Positions 783-60,088 of a stretch of 60,088 nucleotides of DNA are shown here, one piece after another. The translations under genes and the position numbers were made by a program. The stretch is from Halorubrum sp. 48-1-W. GTDB lineage: Archaea > Halobacteriota > Halobacteria > Halobacteriales > Haloferacaceae. Below the pieces are notes generated by a model. That model had not been told where the DNA came from and made no database searches. It saw only the letters and a program-made list of their open reading frames with translations. Numbering within the stretch: the first letter of the stretch is position 1; the number at the start of each line of letters is the position of its first letter. The stretch spans positions 1 through 60,088 of the forward strand of contig NZ_QMIM01000028.1 in NCBI RefSeq assembly GCF_003287355.1. Direction: 5' to 3'.

Positions 783-2981
783 ATGGGGAAGCAACTGGAG
801 CGTGACCTCGGTCTCCCCGCGGTGACGGCCATCAGCATCGGCGCGATGGTCGGCAGCGGCATCTTCATCCTGCCGGGGTTGGCGATGGAGATGGCGGGTC
901 CGGCGGTCGTGTTCGCGTACTTCCTCGCGGGCGTGTTGGTGTTGCCGGCGGCGCTGAGCAAGTCCGAGATGGCGACGGCGATGCCCGAGGCCGGCGGGAC
1001 CTACCTCTACATCGAGCGGGCGATGGGTCCGCTCTTCGGGACGATCGCCGGGGTCGGGACGTGGTTCTCGCTGACGTTCAAGGGCGGGCTGGCGCTGGTC
1101 GGGGGCGCGCCGTACCTGGTGTTGTTGTTCGACCTCCCGGTGAAGCCGGTCGCGCTCGCGGTCGCGGCGCTGCTGATCGTGTTGAACGTCGTCGGCGCGA
1201 AACAGACCGGGCGGATGCAGATCGTCATCGTCGCGGTCATGCTGGCGGTGATGGTCTGGTTCATCGTCGTCGGCGCGCCGAGCGTCGAGAACGCCCGGTT
1301 CGAGGGCTTCTTCGACGGCGGGATGGAGGGGATCCTCGGCGCGACCGGGTTCGTGTTCGTCTCCTACGCCGGCGTCACGAAGGTCGCCAGCGTCGCCGAG
1401 GAGGTCGAGAACCCCGACCGGAACCTCCCGCTCGGGATCCTCGGCTCGCTCGTGATCACCGCCGGGATCTACGTCGCCATCGTGACCGTGATGGTCGGCG
1501 TCGCGGACGAGGCCGTCCTGACCGACACGGAGACGCCGATGCAGGTCGCGGCCGAAAGCGCGCTACCCGCGGTCGGCGTCGCCGCCGTCGTCGTCGCGGC
1601 GCTACTCGCGCTGATCAGCACCGCCAACGCGGGGATCCTCTCCTCCTCGCGCTACCCCTTCGCGATGAGTCGCGACGGGCTCGCACCCGACGTCTTCGAG
1701 ACCGTCAGCGACCGGTTCGACACCCCGGTCAACGCGATCACGATCACCGGCGGGGTGTTGCTCGTCCTGATCGCGTTCGTTCCAATCGACGACATCGCCA
1801 AACTCGCCAGCGCGTTCAAGATCCTGGTGTTCATCCTGATCAACGTCGCGCTGATCGCCTTCCGGCAGGGCTCGATCGAGGCGTACGACCCCAGCTTCGA
1901 GTCGCCGCTGTATCCGGTCCCCCAGCTGGTCGGGATCGTCGGCGGGGTCGTTCTCCTCCGATACATCGGGTTCGTCCCCCTGGTCGGGGCCGTCGTCATC
2001 ACCGTCGGGTCGACGGCGTGGTACTACTTCTTCGTCCACCGCCGGGGCGGCGTCGCGCGCGAGGGAGCGATGACCGACGCGCTCCGCCGAAGCGTCGGGC
2101 GGGACGTAGTCGAGCAGACCGAGTCCGCGGTCGGGACCGACGGACACGAGGTCCTCGTGGCGGTCACCGAGCGGACGGCGCCCGCCGTCGAGCGGTCGCT
2201 CGTCGACCTCGCCACGGACCTCGCGCGCACCCGGGAGGGAGGCGTCCGGGTGGCCCAGTTCGACGAATCGCCCGACCAGACGCCGCTCCCACAGTCCGCG
2301 TCCGAACTCACCGAGGCCGACCGGGCGTTCGAGGCCCGGATGGCCGACCGCGCGACCGATTCGGAGATGCCGATCCGGTACGGCGAGGTAGTCAGCCACG
2401 ACACCCGACACGCGGTCGTCAACTACGCCGCCGAGATCGACGCCGACACGCTGGTGATCGAACGCTCCACCGGGTCCGGAACGTTGCTCGGTAGCGATTC
2501 GGACTGGATCGAGCGCCACGCGCCGTGTACCGTCATCGAGGCGTCGAACCTCGACCACGACGCGGTCGAACGCGTCGGCGTCGTCACCGACGAGGGACCG
2601 TTCGATCCCGCGAAGGTCGCGCTCGCCGACGCGCTCGCGACGGCGACCGACGCGACGGTCACGTTCTATTTCGCCCTCGGCGCGGACCCGGCCGAGAGCC
2701 GCCGGAACACCACCGACGACTACCTCTCGGAACTGGCGGCGCTGTGTGAGGCCCCGGTCGAGACCCAGGTCGTCGAGTCGGACGCCGACGACGCGGTCGA
2801 ACTCGCAGCCGGCGACGCCGACGTCCTCGTCGTCAACGGCGTCCAGCGCGGTCTCACCGACCGCCTGTTCGCGCGCGGTGCGGACCCGGCGACGGTCGGC
2901 CCGGAGCACGGGACCCTCGTCGTCTACGGCGCGAGCCAACCGGGACGGCTCCGTCGGGCGGTGGAACGGCGACTGTTCTGA
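783..2981 (+). CDS. APC permease fused to C-terminal UspA domains
   Basis: A 732-residue protein. Residues 1-440 are a 12-helix amino acid-polyamine-organocation permease with the family motif GAMVGSGIFILPG in helix 1. About 465-730 hold two UspA-like cytoplasmic domains (beginning GHEVLVAVTERT and VERVGVVTDEG). This architecture is common in haloarchaea and suggests amino-acid or cation-amino-acid uptake gated by a nucleotide- or stress-sensing tail. The open frame extends upstream to 582, but the ATG at 783 is preferred because it begins the conserved MGKQLERDLGL and the upstream residues are arginine-rich and not haloarchaeal in character. The divergent permease/UspA operon next door has the same two parts as separate proteins. 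Confidence 0.88.
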   Translation: MGKQLERDLGLPAVTAISIGAMVGSGIFILPGLAMEMAGPAVVFAYFLAGVLVLPAALSKSEMATAMPEAGGTYLYIERAMGPLFGTIAGVGTWFSLTFKGGLALVGGAPYLVLLFDLPVKPVALAVAALLIVLNVVGAKQTGRMQIVIVAVMLAVMVWFIVVGAPSVENARFEGFFDGGMEGILGATGFVFVSYAGVTKVASVAEEVENPDRNLPLGILGSLVITAGIYVAIVTVMVGVADEAVLTDTETPMQVAAESALPAVGVAAVVVAALLALISTANAGILSSSRYPFAMSRDGLAPDVFETVSDRFDTPVNAITITGGVLLVLIAFVPIDDIAKLASAFKILVFILINVALIAFRQGSIEAYDPSFESPLYPVPQLVGIVGGVVLLRYIGFVPLVGAVVITVGSTAWYYFFVHRRGGVAREGAMTDALRRSVGRDVVEQTESAVGTDGHEVLVAVTERTAPAVERSLVDLATDLARTREGGVRVAQFDESPDQTPLPQSASELTEADRAFEARMADRATDSEMPIRYGEVVSHDTRHAVVNYAAEIDADTLVIERSTGSGTLLGSDSDWIERHAPCTVIEASNLDHDAVERVGVVTDEGPFDPAKVALADALATATDATVTFYFALGADPAESRRNTTDDYLSELAALCEAPVETQVVESDADDAVELAAGDADVLVVNGVQRGLTDRLFARGADPATVGPEHGTLVVYGASQPGRLRRAVERRLF

Positions 2982-3033
2982 GATGCCGGACGAACCGGAG
3001 GGGAGCCGTTCGTTCGGGGCTCCTCGCGGAGCC

Positions 3034-3042
3034 GTTATATGG
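3034..3042 (+). promoter_or_regulatory. TATA element of the 118-residue protein gene
   Basis: GTTATATGG lies 23-31 bases before the ATG at 3065, the spacing expected when transcription starts at or next to the start codon (leaderless message). Confidence 0.55.
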
Positions 3043-3064
3043 CTTCGAGTTCGAACCTCCGGAC

Positions 3065-3421
3065 ATGCCCAGTTCCACAGAGGAGCCCACGCCTCCGGAG
3101 GGGTTGCCGGACCGACTCGCCGCGGAGTTAGGGGAGGCGTCGCCGGAGGAGCTCCGAACGGCGATCGTTCACGCTCGGGAACTGCTCCGGTTTCAGGAGG
3201 AGCGGGAACTCCCGATCGAACCGGAGCCCGGCGAGGACGTCGTTCGTGTCATCGAACACGAAGGATACACGGAGGTCGTCAAACGGCACCGCTGTGAGGA
3301 GGGCTGTGAGGAGTGTCCGCACGGTCCCTACCTCTACCACGTCACCGAGGAACCCCAGCCGGACGGCGAGCCGAAGGTCCACTGGTCGTTCATCGGCGAG
3401 GTGAACGCCGACGGGGACTGA
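3065..3421 (+). CDS. Conserved haloarchaeal protein with C-x4-C-x2-C-P-H-G-P-Y motif
   Basis: A 118-residue soluble acidic protein. The N-terminal half is helical and charged; the C-terminal half holds RCEEGCEECPHGPYLYHV, a cysteine-rich turn followed by GPY and aromatic residues. This pattern resembles the DUF6788 type of small protein (Cys cluster, then HGPYYY), tentatively recognised and without known function; metal binding by the cysteines is an inference. A TATA element at 3034-3042 supports this start. It converges on trkH (stop 40 bp away) and shares no operon with its neighbours. Confidence 0.75.
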   Translation: MPSSTEEPTPPEGLPDRLAAELGEASPEELRTAIVHARELLRFQEERELPIEPEPGEDVVRVIEHEGYTEVVKRHRCEEGCEECPHGPYLYHVTEEPQPDGEPKVHWSFIGEVNADGD

Positions 3422-3461
3422 TCGCGGGACCGCGACGCGGCTCCGTCGTCCGACGGCGCCG

Positions 3462-5030
3462 TCACCGGCTGTCGATCGCCGAGATGAACACCGCGAGCAC
3501 CGGGACGATCTCCAACCGGCCGACCCACATGAGGAATATCATCAACAGCTTCGAGGCGTTCGAGAAGAACTCGTAGCTCCCGAACGGCCCCAGCCGGCCG
3601 AACCCCGGCCCGATGTTGCCGATGGTGGCGAGCGACGCGCTGATCGACTCCAACACCGACAGCTGGATCCCGATCCGCGCCGTGTCGAGCGCGATGAACA
3701 CCGCCGAGAGCGCGAACAGAACGACGTAGAGGAGGGTGAACACCATGATCCCGCGGATCGCATCCTCGTCGACGACGTTGCCGCCGAGGCGAACCGGCCG
3801 GACGACGTCCGGATGCGCCGTGGTGAACAGCTCGCGTCGGATCGTCTTCCCGACGATGAGCCACCGGACGACCTTGACTCCGCCGCCGGTCGAGCCGGCC
3901 GACCCGCCGATGAACATCGCGAACAACAGCAGGACCTGCGCGTGCGTGTCCCACTGGGCGAAGTCGGCGGTCGCGTATCCGGTGGAGTTGAGCAACGACC
4001 CGATCTGGAACGCCGCCTGTCGGAGCGCGTTCTCGGTGACGCCCTCGGTCGCGCCACCCAGTTCGATCGGGGGTGCGGCACCCCGGAACAGCAACACCGC
4101 GAGGACGGCGGTCACGACCGCGAGCGCGCCGGCGTACGCGCGGAACTCCGCGTTCTCTAGCATGACCTCGGCCTCGCCGCGCAACACGTGCCAGAACAGC
4201 GCGAAGTTGACCCCGGCGACGAGCATGAAGGGGATGACGACCCACTGGACGGCCGCCGAGAACGCCGCGATGCTGTCCGCCTCCGGCGAGAACCCGCCGG
4301 TCGGGAGCGTGGTGAACCCGTGGGCCACGGCGTTGTACAGGTCCATGTTGGGGGCCATCCCACCCAGGTGGAGCCCGTACAGGATCGCGATATAGACGAC
4401 CGTGAACCCGAAGTAGATCAGCCAGAGCGCGCGCGCCGTCTCGGCGATCCGCGGCGTGAGCTTCTGGAGTTCGGGCCCCGGCGCCTCCGACTCCATCAGT
4501 TGGGCCCCGTTGACGGCGACCTCGGGGAGGATCGCGATCATCAGCACGATGATCCCCATCCCGCCGAGCCACTGGGTGAGCTGCCGCCACATCAGCAGGG
4601 CGTGGGAGTGGCGGTCGGTACTTATCTCGCCGAGCACGGTCGCACCCGTCGTCGTGAACCCGCTCATCGACTCGAAGAGGGCGTTGATGATGGACTCGGA
4701 GAACGCGCCGAACGACCCGGTCTGGAGCCCGACCGTCGAGGCCGTCCCGTACCCGGCGAGCAGGTACGGAACGGTGCCGATCACCGCGGCTGCGAGCCAG
4801 GCGAGCGAGACGAAAAGCAACGCCTCGCGCGGCCCGAGGTCCGGGTCCGGGTCGACTCGCTCTACGGCGAATCCGATCCCGGCGACGAGCGCGAGCGAGA
4901 CGAGGAACACCCACACGTCCTCGCCGTAGACCACGGCGACGACGAGCGGAACCAGCATCGTGACGGCGAGGTACTTGATCCCGACCCCGAGAAGCCCCAC
5001 GCTCGCCTTCCAGTTGACGCCCCAGGACAT
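3462..5030 (-). CDS. trkH: TrkH-family potassium uptake membrane subunit (first copy)
   Basis: A 522-residue integral membrane protein of the TrkH/KtrB superfamily, the pore that carries K+ across the membrane. The four pore-loop segments with their selectivity glycines are visible: SGFTTTGATV, GFTTLPTGGFSP, STGYATADF and NIGPGFG. The second position varies, as is usual. It is the last gene of a minus-strand cluster yhbY-mscS-trkA-trkH-trkH, separated by 79 bp from the second trkH, where an AT-rich TTTAATAC element could provide its own promoter. The gating subunit is probably the TrkA encoded upstream. Confidence 0.93.
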   Translation of the reverse strand: MSWGVNWKASVGLLGVGIKYLAVTMLVPLVVAVVYGEDVWVFLVSLALVAGIGFAVERVDPDPDLGPREALLFVSLAWLAAAVIGTVPYLLAGYGTASTVGLQTGSFGAFSESIINALFESMSGFTTTGATVLGEISTDRHSHALLMWRQLTQWLGGMGIIVLMIAILPEVAVNGAQLMESEAPGPELQKLTPRIAETARALWLIYFGFTVVYIAILYGLHLGGMAPNMDLYNAVAHGFTTLPTGGFSPEADSIAAFSAAVQWVVIPFMLVAGVNFALFWHVLRGEAEVMLENAEFRAYAGALAVVTAVLAVLLFRGAAPPIELGGATEGVTENALRQAAFQIGSLLNSTGYATADFAQWDTHAQVLLLFAMFIGGSAGSTGGGVKVVRWLIVGKTIRRELFTTAHPDVVRPVRLGGNVVDEDAIRGIMVFTLLYVVLFALSAVFIALDTARIGIQLSVLESISASLATIGNIGPGFGRLGPFGSYEFFSNASKLLMIFLMWVGRLEIVPVLAVFISAIDSR

Positions 5031-58593: not shown

Positions 58594-59193
58594 ATGGACC
58601 TGTCGGGGCTCCGCCGTCACACGCCACGGTCGCTCGCCGGCCGCCGGGAGGCGGCCGTGTTGGCCCCGGTGATCGAACGCGACGGCGACGCCCACCTGCT
58701 TTTCACGAAGCGCGCGGAGCACCTCGGCGAGCATCCCGGACAGATGAGCTTCCCCGGGGGCGGCCGCGAGCCGGTCGACCGGACCCTGACCGACACCGCC
58801 CTCCGCGAGGCGAACGAGGAGGTGGGAATGCGCCCGAACGAGGTCGACGTCGTCGGCCGCATGGACGACACGCGGACCAGCAGCCACTACGCGGTCCGCC
58901 CCTTCGTCGGCGTCGCGCCCGACCGGGAGTACGTCCCCGACGAGTCGGAGGTCGCCGAGGTCGCCGTCCTCGCGGTCGACGACCTGACCGACCCCGCGAA
59001 CTACGAGTCCGAACGACGGGTCGGCCACCCGGAGTACGGCGACCACCGCGTCCACTACTTCCACGTGGACGGCTACACCGTCTGGGGGGTGACGGGCCGG
59101 ATGGTCGTCCAACTGCTCGAGCACACGACCGACTGGCGCGCGCCGGCGGAGGTCGACCGCGTCGTCGGTCCCGACGCGGACCTCCCAGTCTGA
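58594..59193 (+). CDS. Nudix hydrolase, CoA pyrophosphatase-like
   Basis: A 199-residue Nudix enzyme that cleaves nucleoside diphosphates linked to another group. The Nudix box G-x5-E-x7-RE-x2-EE-x-G is seen as GGGREPVDRTLTDTALREAN and EEVG. The residues before it (GEHPGQMSFPGGG) match the NUDT7/CoA-pyrophosphatase group (H/PGQIAFPGG). The ATG at 58594 (MDLSGLRRHTPRSLAGR) fits the family; an upstream frame is poor. Its end marks the border of the transposon region. Confidence 0.9.
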   Translation: MDLSGLRRHTPRSLAGRREAAVLAPVIERDGDAHLLFTKRAEHLGEHPGQMSFPGGGREPVDRTLTDTALREANEEVGMRPNEVDVVGRMDDTRTSSHYAVRPFVGVAPDREYVPDESEVAEVAVLAVDDLTDPANYESERRVGHPEYGDHRVHYFHVDGYTVWGVTGRMVVQLLEHTTDWRAPAEVDRVVGPDADLPV

Positions 59194-59326
59194 TAGTGAT
59201 TACCAAAATTGAGGCGAGAATGCCCCTTCCTCCACGAGCGAGTACCGCGAGCGAGTAAGGAGGGGATGAATCGCCGTACACCAGTACAAACCATTAAATC
59301 GACATATCTCTAATCAAGAGACAGCG
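59194..59326. other. Leader of the tnpB fragment with a hairpin
   Basis: This 133-bp stretch, AT-richer than the Nudix gene, leads into tnpB. It contains a stem of CCCC-TTCC (59223-59230) with GGAGGGG (59259-59265) enclosing a direct repeat of CGAGCGAGTA, then GTTTGTACTGG-type unstructured DNA and a weak TATA region (CATTAAATCGAC). It could be the left end of the IS605-type element, or the right end of another one. Confidence 0.4.
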
Positions 59327-59986
59327 ATGGAGTACAGTCACCGCTACCACGCCTACCCAACACAAGAGGTAGCGGAGCGGCTTGATCACCACATCGATGT
59401 TCATCGCCAAGCGTACAACTACACCCTCTACGAGTACGAGAACGTGGACGCCGACGACATCGGCTCTGCGTACAAGCACCACTCTCGACTTCCCGACTGG
59501 AAAGACGAGTTTCCCATCTTCTCGGACGTCAATTCGAAGGCTCTCCAACGAACCGTCACGCGGTTCTATCAGAACCTCACCGGACTCTCCGAACAGAAGC
59601 AAAATGGGAACAGGGTCGAGAAACTCACATGGAAATCACCCAGAGACTACCAGAGCATGACGTACTCGCAGTCCGGCTTCGAGCTCAAAAACACGAGTGG
59701 CTGCACCGCGACACTCTGGCTCTCCAAAATCGGAGATATCGAGATCTGCTACCATCGCGAGATCCCCGACGAGGCATTCATCAAAGAAGTCACGGTGAAA
59801 CAGGAAACGACCAGCGAGTGGTTCGTCTCCTTCGGCCTCGAAACTGACACGGCAGATCTGCCTGAGAAACCCGAGGTAGAGACGCTCGATACGAGCAACA
59901 GTATCGGGATTGACCTCGGGATTGTAAACTACCCTACCCTACTCCCTCGGCGCTACGCGCCTCGGTCCTTGAGGGTAAGGCTTTGA
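59327..59986 (+). pseudogene. tnpB: IS605-type tnpB, truncated after the RuvC-I motif
   Basis: An ATG opens a TnpB (OrfB) RNA-guided nuclease: residues 1-200 show the family start (MEYSHRYHAYPTQEVAERL), the N-terminal domains and the RuvC-I motif GIDLGIVNY with its catalytic Asp. Full TnpB proteins are about 400 residues and need RuvC-II, a zinc ribbon and RuvC-III; all are missing. After codon 202 the frame runs into foreign DNA (PTLLPRRYAPRSLRVRL and stop), which is the right end of another element in the opposite direction. So the gene is dead. Confidence 0.85.
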
Positions 59987-60002
59987 TGTGGACTCCCGGC
60001 AA
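59929..60002 (-). mobile_element. Right end of an inverted IS605-type element inserted in tnpB
   Basis: Read on the minus strand, this is the sequence after the stop of the tnpB at 60003: hairpin GGCGC-TAC-GCGCC (59949-59961) flanked by CCCTC/GAGGG (59944-59948 and 59971-59975), ending in GGGTAGGGTAG at 59929. GGGT-rich tips of this sort close haloarchaeal IS1341/IS605 elements. The plus-strand tnpB reading frame breaks exactly here. Confidence 0.65.
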
Positions 60003-60088
60003 TCAGTCCCCAGCAATAGTCTGGTAACTCTCGCCGTTCAACGTCCCACCATTCACACGCACGTCTACTGGTGCGTCTCCGCTCCCCG
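60003..60088 (-). CDS. tnpB: Second tnpB gene, C-terminal fragment
   Basis: The last 27 residues and stop (TGA, complement at 60003-60005) of a gene running in from the right edge on the minus strand: PVDVRVNGGTLNGESYQTIA and GD. This is the characteristic C-terminal tail of haloarchaeal IS1341-type TnpB proteins. It is in the opposite orientation to the truncated tnpB at 59327, and its right end follows directly. Whether the full gene is intact cannot be seen. Confidence 0.7.
   Translation of the reverse strand, partial: GSGDAPVDVRVNGGTLNGESYQTIAGD

What the first reader, a model, noticed from the sequence alone, without database searches (positions are those of the whole stretch)
59327..60088. 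A tnpB element inserted head-on into another tnpB, just past RuvC-I
The plus-strand tnpB breaks inside codon 202, immediately after GIDLGIVNY, where the right end of a minus-strand tnpB element begins. In IS605-type elements the RNA guide of TnpB comes from the DNA flanking the right end. Here that flank is the RuvC-I coding region of the other tnpB (about 59908-59928). If the inserted element is active, its guide would match uninterrupted copies of the family it disrupted, one element acting against another.
Basis: partly seen in the sequence, partly recalled or inferred. Interest (0 to 1): 0.6.

Follow-up and report, generated by a model that had tools for sequence, protein, structure and literature searches.

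The report
Jumping gene inside another jumping gene
In a salt-loving archaeon, one transposon carrying the RNA-guided nuclease gene tnpB has inserted into the catalytic region of a different tnpB, destroying it; the insertion is real, but such nesting is already known in these organisms and nothing shows that the two elements fight each other.

Summary
The window is a whole contig that ends inside the inserted element. That element is an IS200/IS605-type, tnpB-only transposon (~1.47 kb in full copies; TCAG target, right end GTAGTTTAC). It sits head-on in a different tnpB. The break is at 59923/59924, exactly between codons 199 and 200. The apparent 'VNY' is the element's right end (GTAAACTAC) replacing the native LNY (CTGAACTAT). 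The other half of the broken gene is at the end of contig C8. Gene order in relatives (proS-NUDIX-gatD) shows that C14 and C8 are neighbours. Removing the element restores GIDLGI|LNYIHTSDG, as in uninterrupted relatives. The broken tnpB element itself sits in a terminal repeat of a 108-bp MITE, so the nest is three deep. The predicted guide does cover RuvC-I, but this genome holds no other target copy, and the nearest relatives differ at two of 20 guide bases. Ordinary TnpB retention (the guide matches the empty site) explains it. Nested IS605 elements were already reported in haloarchaea (PMC3119063). In passing: 17 of 42 insertions of this family lie on a head-on TGA stop codon, where the element's end supplies TAA in the same phase.

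The parts
58594..59193 (+). NUDIX-type hydrolase gene; its TGA stop codon (59191-59193) is the 3-bp target duplication of the outermost insertion
   Evidence: and ORF (NUDIX name from own reading of the sequence); same gene sits next to gatD in relatives L107-L109
59194..59203 (.). First 10 bases (TAGTGATTAC) of a 108-bp MITE with 15-bp terminal inverted repeats and TGA duplication; the rest is on contig C8 (77610-77707)
   Evidence: joined halves give a 108-bp repeat matching copies in C1, C10 and congeners at 82-89%
59204..59923 (+). Left part of the interrupted IS605-type (tnpB-only) element; its remaining part and its right end (...TAGTTCAC) are on contig C8
   Evidence: removing it restores the perfect 15-bp MITE terminal repeat
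59327..59923 (+). N-terminal 199 codons of the interrupted tnpB, ending ...SIGIDLGI; the reading frame runs on through element DNA to a stop ending at 59986
59924..60088 (-). Right-end 165 bp of the inserted IS200/IS605-type tnpB element (element continues beyond the contig end)
   Evidence: common to copies across the genus, diverging after GTAGTTTAC
60003..60088 (-). C-terminal 27 codons plus TGA stop of the inserted element's TnpB
   Evidence: matches the C-terminus of full-length copies
59931..59981 (-). Right-end imperfect hairpin (GCCTTACCCTC...GAGTAGGGTAGGGT), last structure of the predicted omega RNA before the guide
   Evidence: helix conserved in 28 copies, with mostly one-sided or G-U changes and little true covariation
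59904..59923 (-). Predicted TnpB guide (AATCCCGAGGTCAATCCCGA) = right flank = RuvC-I codons of the interrupted tnpB
   Evidence: Position deduced from the right-end boundary; guide location by analogy with ISDra2 reRNA (PMC8612924); not observed experimentally

Best explanation
A tnpB-only element of the IS200/IS605 kind (mobilised in trans by a TnpA not identified here) inserted, without target duplication, 3' of a TTCAG in the bottom strand of an older tnpB of another IS605-type element, at the codons LNY just after the RuvC-I aspartate. This split and inactivated the older tnpB. The element's RNA guide should now read the RuvC-I codons of the victim. Its most likely role is the normal one for TnpB: cutting the empty site on sister chromosomes or donor joints so that the element is kept. 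Shown: anatomy, exact boundaries, empty site, synteny, family membership by sequence. Inferred: ssDNA transposition, guide production and retention function.
For: Right ends of many copies across the genus share GTAGTTTAC and left ends begin C(A/G)TTTTCGAGG or close variants after (N)TCAG in nearly all. C14 plus C8 gives GGGATT|CTGAAC, i.e. GIDLGI|LNYIHTSDG, a single open full-length TnpB reading frame, and congeners (G005, G016 and others) align over all 1266 bases without interruption. proS-NUDIX-gatD is contiguous in relatives. Left and right ends carry subterminal hairpins. Full copies encode one 414-415 aa TnpB and no TnpA; the relative on C35 scores above the guided_TnpB cut-off and aligns with solved Cas12f/TnpB chains, with GIDLG, FEEL and NADYN motifs. 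Guide/TAM logic from ISDra2 (PMC8612924) and IS drive in multicopy DNA (PMC11870625).
Against: The interior of this copy is not assembled, so whether its TnpB is intact is unknown. No RNA data. No TnpA element with matching ends was found near the Y1_Tnp hits. Right-end covariation is weak. The pairing C14-C8 rests on synteny and sequence, not on reads.
Confidence: 0.88

Rival explanations
1. Element-against-element targeting: the inserted TnpB uses its RuvC-I guide to cut intact copies of the interrupted tnpB family arriving on plasmids or in other strains.
For: The predicted guide covers the catalytic-site codons, and the uninterrupted gene carries TTCAG next to it. Relatives of the interrupted tnpB occur on many haloarchaeal plasmids at up to ~82% identity.
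Against: No second target in this genome; best targets in 51 congeners have 2 mismatches, one in the TAM-proximal part, and many relatives carry TTGAG instead of TTCAG; none in viral contigs by the pattern used; no recurrence of the junction in the scanned genome set.
Confidence: 0.08
2. Assembly or chimera artefact: a tnpB fragment joined by chance to a repeated right end at a contig edge.
For: The junction lies 165 bp from a contig end, and two similar copies of the element collapse at four contig ends (C14, C65, C8, C26).
Against: The independent second junction on C8 fits to the base, and proS-NUDIX-gatD synteny in relatives demands the join. The element's target motif is present exactly at the joint.
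Confidence: 0.03
3. Dead wreckage only: the inserted copy is itself inactive and the site is a neutral pile-up of transposons in an intergenic gap.
For: Three nested elements in one intergenic gap; another copy in this genome (C7) has a broken tnpB reading frame; nested pile-ups are common in haloarchaea (PMC3119063).
Against: This copy's right end is 97% identical to copies with intact 414-415 aa TnpB, and the visible C-terminus is intact.
Confidence: 0.25

Closest known systems
IS605-type (TP-A) elements inserted in IS605-type elements of Haloquadratum walsbyi (PMC3119063, Table 5)
   Same: tnpB-bearing haloarchaeal elements with subterminal palindromes, no target duplication, nested in one another (5 TP-A in TP-A and 12 PATE in TP-A listed)
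   Different: There most tnpB genes are pseudogenes and the RNA guide was unknown in 2011; here the exact junction, empty site and predicted guide over RuvC-I are given
ISDra2 / TnpB of Deinococcus radiodurans (PMC8612924)
   Same: TnpB with an RNA guide taken from the right-end flank, target motif on the left flank, no target duplication
   Different: ISDra2 carries tnpA and uses TTGAT; this family is tnpB-only, uses (N)TCAG and its TnpB scores closer to Cas12f-type chains than to ISDra2 TnpB
IS200/IS605 gene drive in plasmids (PMC11870625)
   Same: Guide directed at the empty allele in multicopy DNA, the likely use of this guide in a multi-copy chromosome
   Different: Shown for plasmids in a bacterial system; not tested for this element

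Membership tests
IS200/IS605, tnpB-only (IS1341-like) element (inserted) | TnpB with RuvC motifs and zinc ribbon | tested here: met
   C35 relative: guided_TnpB 172.9 bits, cut-off 100, GIDLG/FEEL/NADYN plus Cys motifs; this copy itself visible only for its last 27 aa
IS200/IS605, tnpB-only (IS1341-like) element (inserted) | No terminal inverted repeats, subterminal hairpins at both ends | tested here: met
IS200/IS605, tnpB-only (IS1341-like) element (inserted) | Fixed short target 5' of left end, no target duplication | tested here: met
   (N)TCAG at nearly all left ends; empty site restored without a leftover base
IS200/IS605, tnpB-only (IS1341-like) element (inserted) | Mobilised by a Y1 TnpA | tested here: inconclusive
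   Full copies lack tnpA; 4 Y1_Tnp hits in genome but none with matching ends found nearby
Active RNA-guided TnpB | Right-end RNA with guide and target cleavage | not testable with these tools
   Only anatomy and a conserved right-end helix; no Rfam match in 59000-60088
IS200/IS605-type element (interrupted) | TnpB, ends and target defined | tested here: met
   Joined frame is a full TnpB; removal restores the MITE repeat at TTAC

The most novel reading that the evidence does not exclude
This element family is built for harmless landing: its target (TCAG, the complement of C|TGA) and its right end (TTAC, the complement of G|TAA) place a stop codon in the same phase, so insertion head-on at a gene end swaps TGA for TAA and leaves the protein almost unchanged, while the TnpB guide reads the gene's last codons. 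The tnpB insertion studied here is the same chemistry in another frame, which is why LNY became VNY. Whether this is an evolved trait or only what purifying selection leaves is open.
Probability: 0.3. Interest if true: 0.55.

Novelty: new member of a known kind. Interest (0 to 1): 0.33.

Why it matters
It is a base-exact case of one guided-nuclease element destroying another at its catalytic site, with the predicted guide lying on that site; it gives a clean testable target pair (exact empty site versus two-mismatch relatives) to ask whether TnpB guides act beyond retention. The stop-codon-preserving insertion pattern of the same family, if evolved, would help explain how tnpB-only elements persist in gene-dense archaeal chromosomes.

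Tried and rejected
Rfam search of 59000-60088: no match. Scan of 84,980 genomes for the same junction (right end followed by a GIDLG-type RuvC-I coding motif): only five Streptomyces matches, taken as chance and not opened; the own genome may be left out of that scan. Viral contigs for the target by a partly degenerate pattern: none; phage records for the right end: none. Search for a TnpA with matching ends around the Y1_Tnp loci: none convincing. Idea that copy 2 (C26/C65) targets other elements: its flank is the end of a 52-bp terminal-only PATE-like repeat found also in C22, C3 and C10 with 0-1 mismatch, but without TCAG beside it. Idea that the interrupted element, when intact, was guided to other MITE copies: the MITE copies in this genome have a changed motif and mismatches. 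Structure prediction was not run: family assignment by sequence was already clear.

Full report
What was checked. The window is an entire contig (C14, 60088 bp) of a 69-contig genome of 3.58 Mb. Its last 762 bases hold a + strand tnpB start and, on the minus strand, the end of another element. The + strand reading frame 59327-59923 matches the NCBIfam RNA-guided TnpB model over positions 2-206 and the OrfB_IS605 helix-turn-helix.

Exact boundary. Copies of the minus-strand element's right end occur in C65, C35 and C7 of the same genome and in 30 further genomes of the genus. Nearly all end in GTAGTTTAC and diverge right after it. In the window this puts the last element base at 59924, so the gene breaks after 597 nt, between codons 199 and 200. 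The likeness is a feature of the element: its right end resembles its target.

The other half. Contig C8 ends with 92 bp of the element's left end, next to TTCAG, and on the other side of it a TnpB C-terminal half starting LNYIHTSDG. Joining the two flanks gives one open TnpB frame with GIDLGILNYIHTSDG, and congeners align over the full 1266 bases without interruption (G005, G016, G029, G035 and others). In relatives proS, NUDIX and gatD are contiguous (gene names from own reading of the translations); C14 ends proS-NUDIX-tnpB and C8 runs tnpB-gatD, so the contigs are neighbours and the junction is not an artefact. A second similar copy explains the four contig ends: left ends C8 and C26, right ends C14 and C65.

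Three layers. Between NUDIX and gatD the relatives have only a short gap. Here a 108-bp MITE (15-bp perfect inverted repeats TAGTGATTACTGCGA, TGA duplicated, at the NUDIX stop codon) was followed by the interrupted tnpB element inserted after TTAC in the MITE's left repeat, then by the second element in that tnpB. Removing each layer restores the sequence below it exactly.

What the inserted element is. Full-length congeneric copies are ~1474 bp with a single 414-415 aa TnpB, no tnpA, the stop codon 79-81 nt from the right end, target (N)TCAG and subterminal hairpins. The C35 relative exceeds the TnpB family cut-off and aligns with solved Cas12f/TnpB chains including the catalytic motifs. The family is spread over haloarchaeal plasmids and already annotated there as RNA-guided endonuclease TnpB. 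The inserted copy's own interior is not in the assembly, so its integrity is unknown.

Function. By the ISDra2 model (PMC8612924) the guide is the ~16 nt beyond the right end and the motif is the transposition target; here TTCAG plus AATCCCGAGGTCAATCCCGA, i.e. the RuvC-I codons of the victim. Within 3 mismatches this genome has no other such site; the junction itself carries TTTAC, which should protect it. In 51 congeners the best sites with TCAG have two mismatches in 20, at positions 4 and 16 or 4 and 13. No viral contig matched the pattern used. So the guide's only perfect target known here is the empty site, which is what retention, or drive between sister copies (PMC11870625), needs. Action against the other tnpB family remains possible but unsupported.

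Known context. Insertion of one mobile element in another is frequent in haloarchaea; the Haloquadratum study counted 192 cases, including 5 IS605-type elements and 12 PATEs inside IS605-type elements (PMC3119063).

Side result. Of 42 insertions of this family with readable right flanks, 17 lie exactly on the TGA stop codon of a head-on gene (open frame of at least 150 codons with haloarchaeal codon bias), against 18 of 211 TCAG sites in the window and 9 of 128 in the local flanks (binomial p about 2e-8 against the window rate). In all 17 the element's end supplies TAA in the same phase; the last codon changes C to G in its third position, synonymous in 9 of 17. Pfam places several of these genes (TruD, SurE, aminotransferases, a pyridine nucleotide-disulphide oxidoreductase), and a RefSeq ABC-transporter gene in Haladaptatus is annotated as ending inside the element. 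The eight annotated plasmid hits opened show only this one case. Purifying selection against insertions inside genes would produce part of this excess, so an evolved safe-landing trait is a hypothesis.

Noticed in passing
L162, L163, L167, L168, L170, L174, L176, L179, L180, L185, L189, L190, L191, L192, L198, L036, L037 (right flanks): 17 of 42 insertions of the family sit head-on at a TGA stop codon, and the element's right end replaces it by TAA in the same phase.
   Followed up: partly
window 59194-59203 and C8:77610-77707 (L041): A 108-bp MITE with 15-bp terminal inverted repeats and TGA/TCA duplications; many copies in congener G043, 2 further copies in this genome (C1, C10).
   Followed up: partly
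L035 166-217; C22:31851-31902, C3:53998-54049, C10:35397-35449: A 52-bp terminal-only PATE-like repeat abuts the second copy of the element; that copy's predicted guide matches the other three repeats with 0-1 mismatch, but none has TCAG beside it.
   Followed up: partly
L123 (G050:C19) 1133-3757: Another nested case in a congener: a different tnpB element lies in the same orientation inside a relative of the interrupted tnpB, around its base 234-244.
   Followed up: no
L036 1337-2569: The inserted family's TnpB has Cas12f2 as its second-best NCBIfam match and hits Cas12f structures more strongly than ISDra2 TnpB.
   Followed up: no
C50:25390-25734 (L038): A ~340-bp element with a left and a right end of this family and too short for tnpB, probably an internally deleted derivative.
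   Followed up: no
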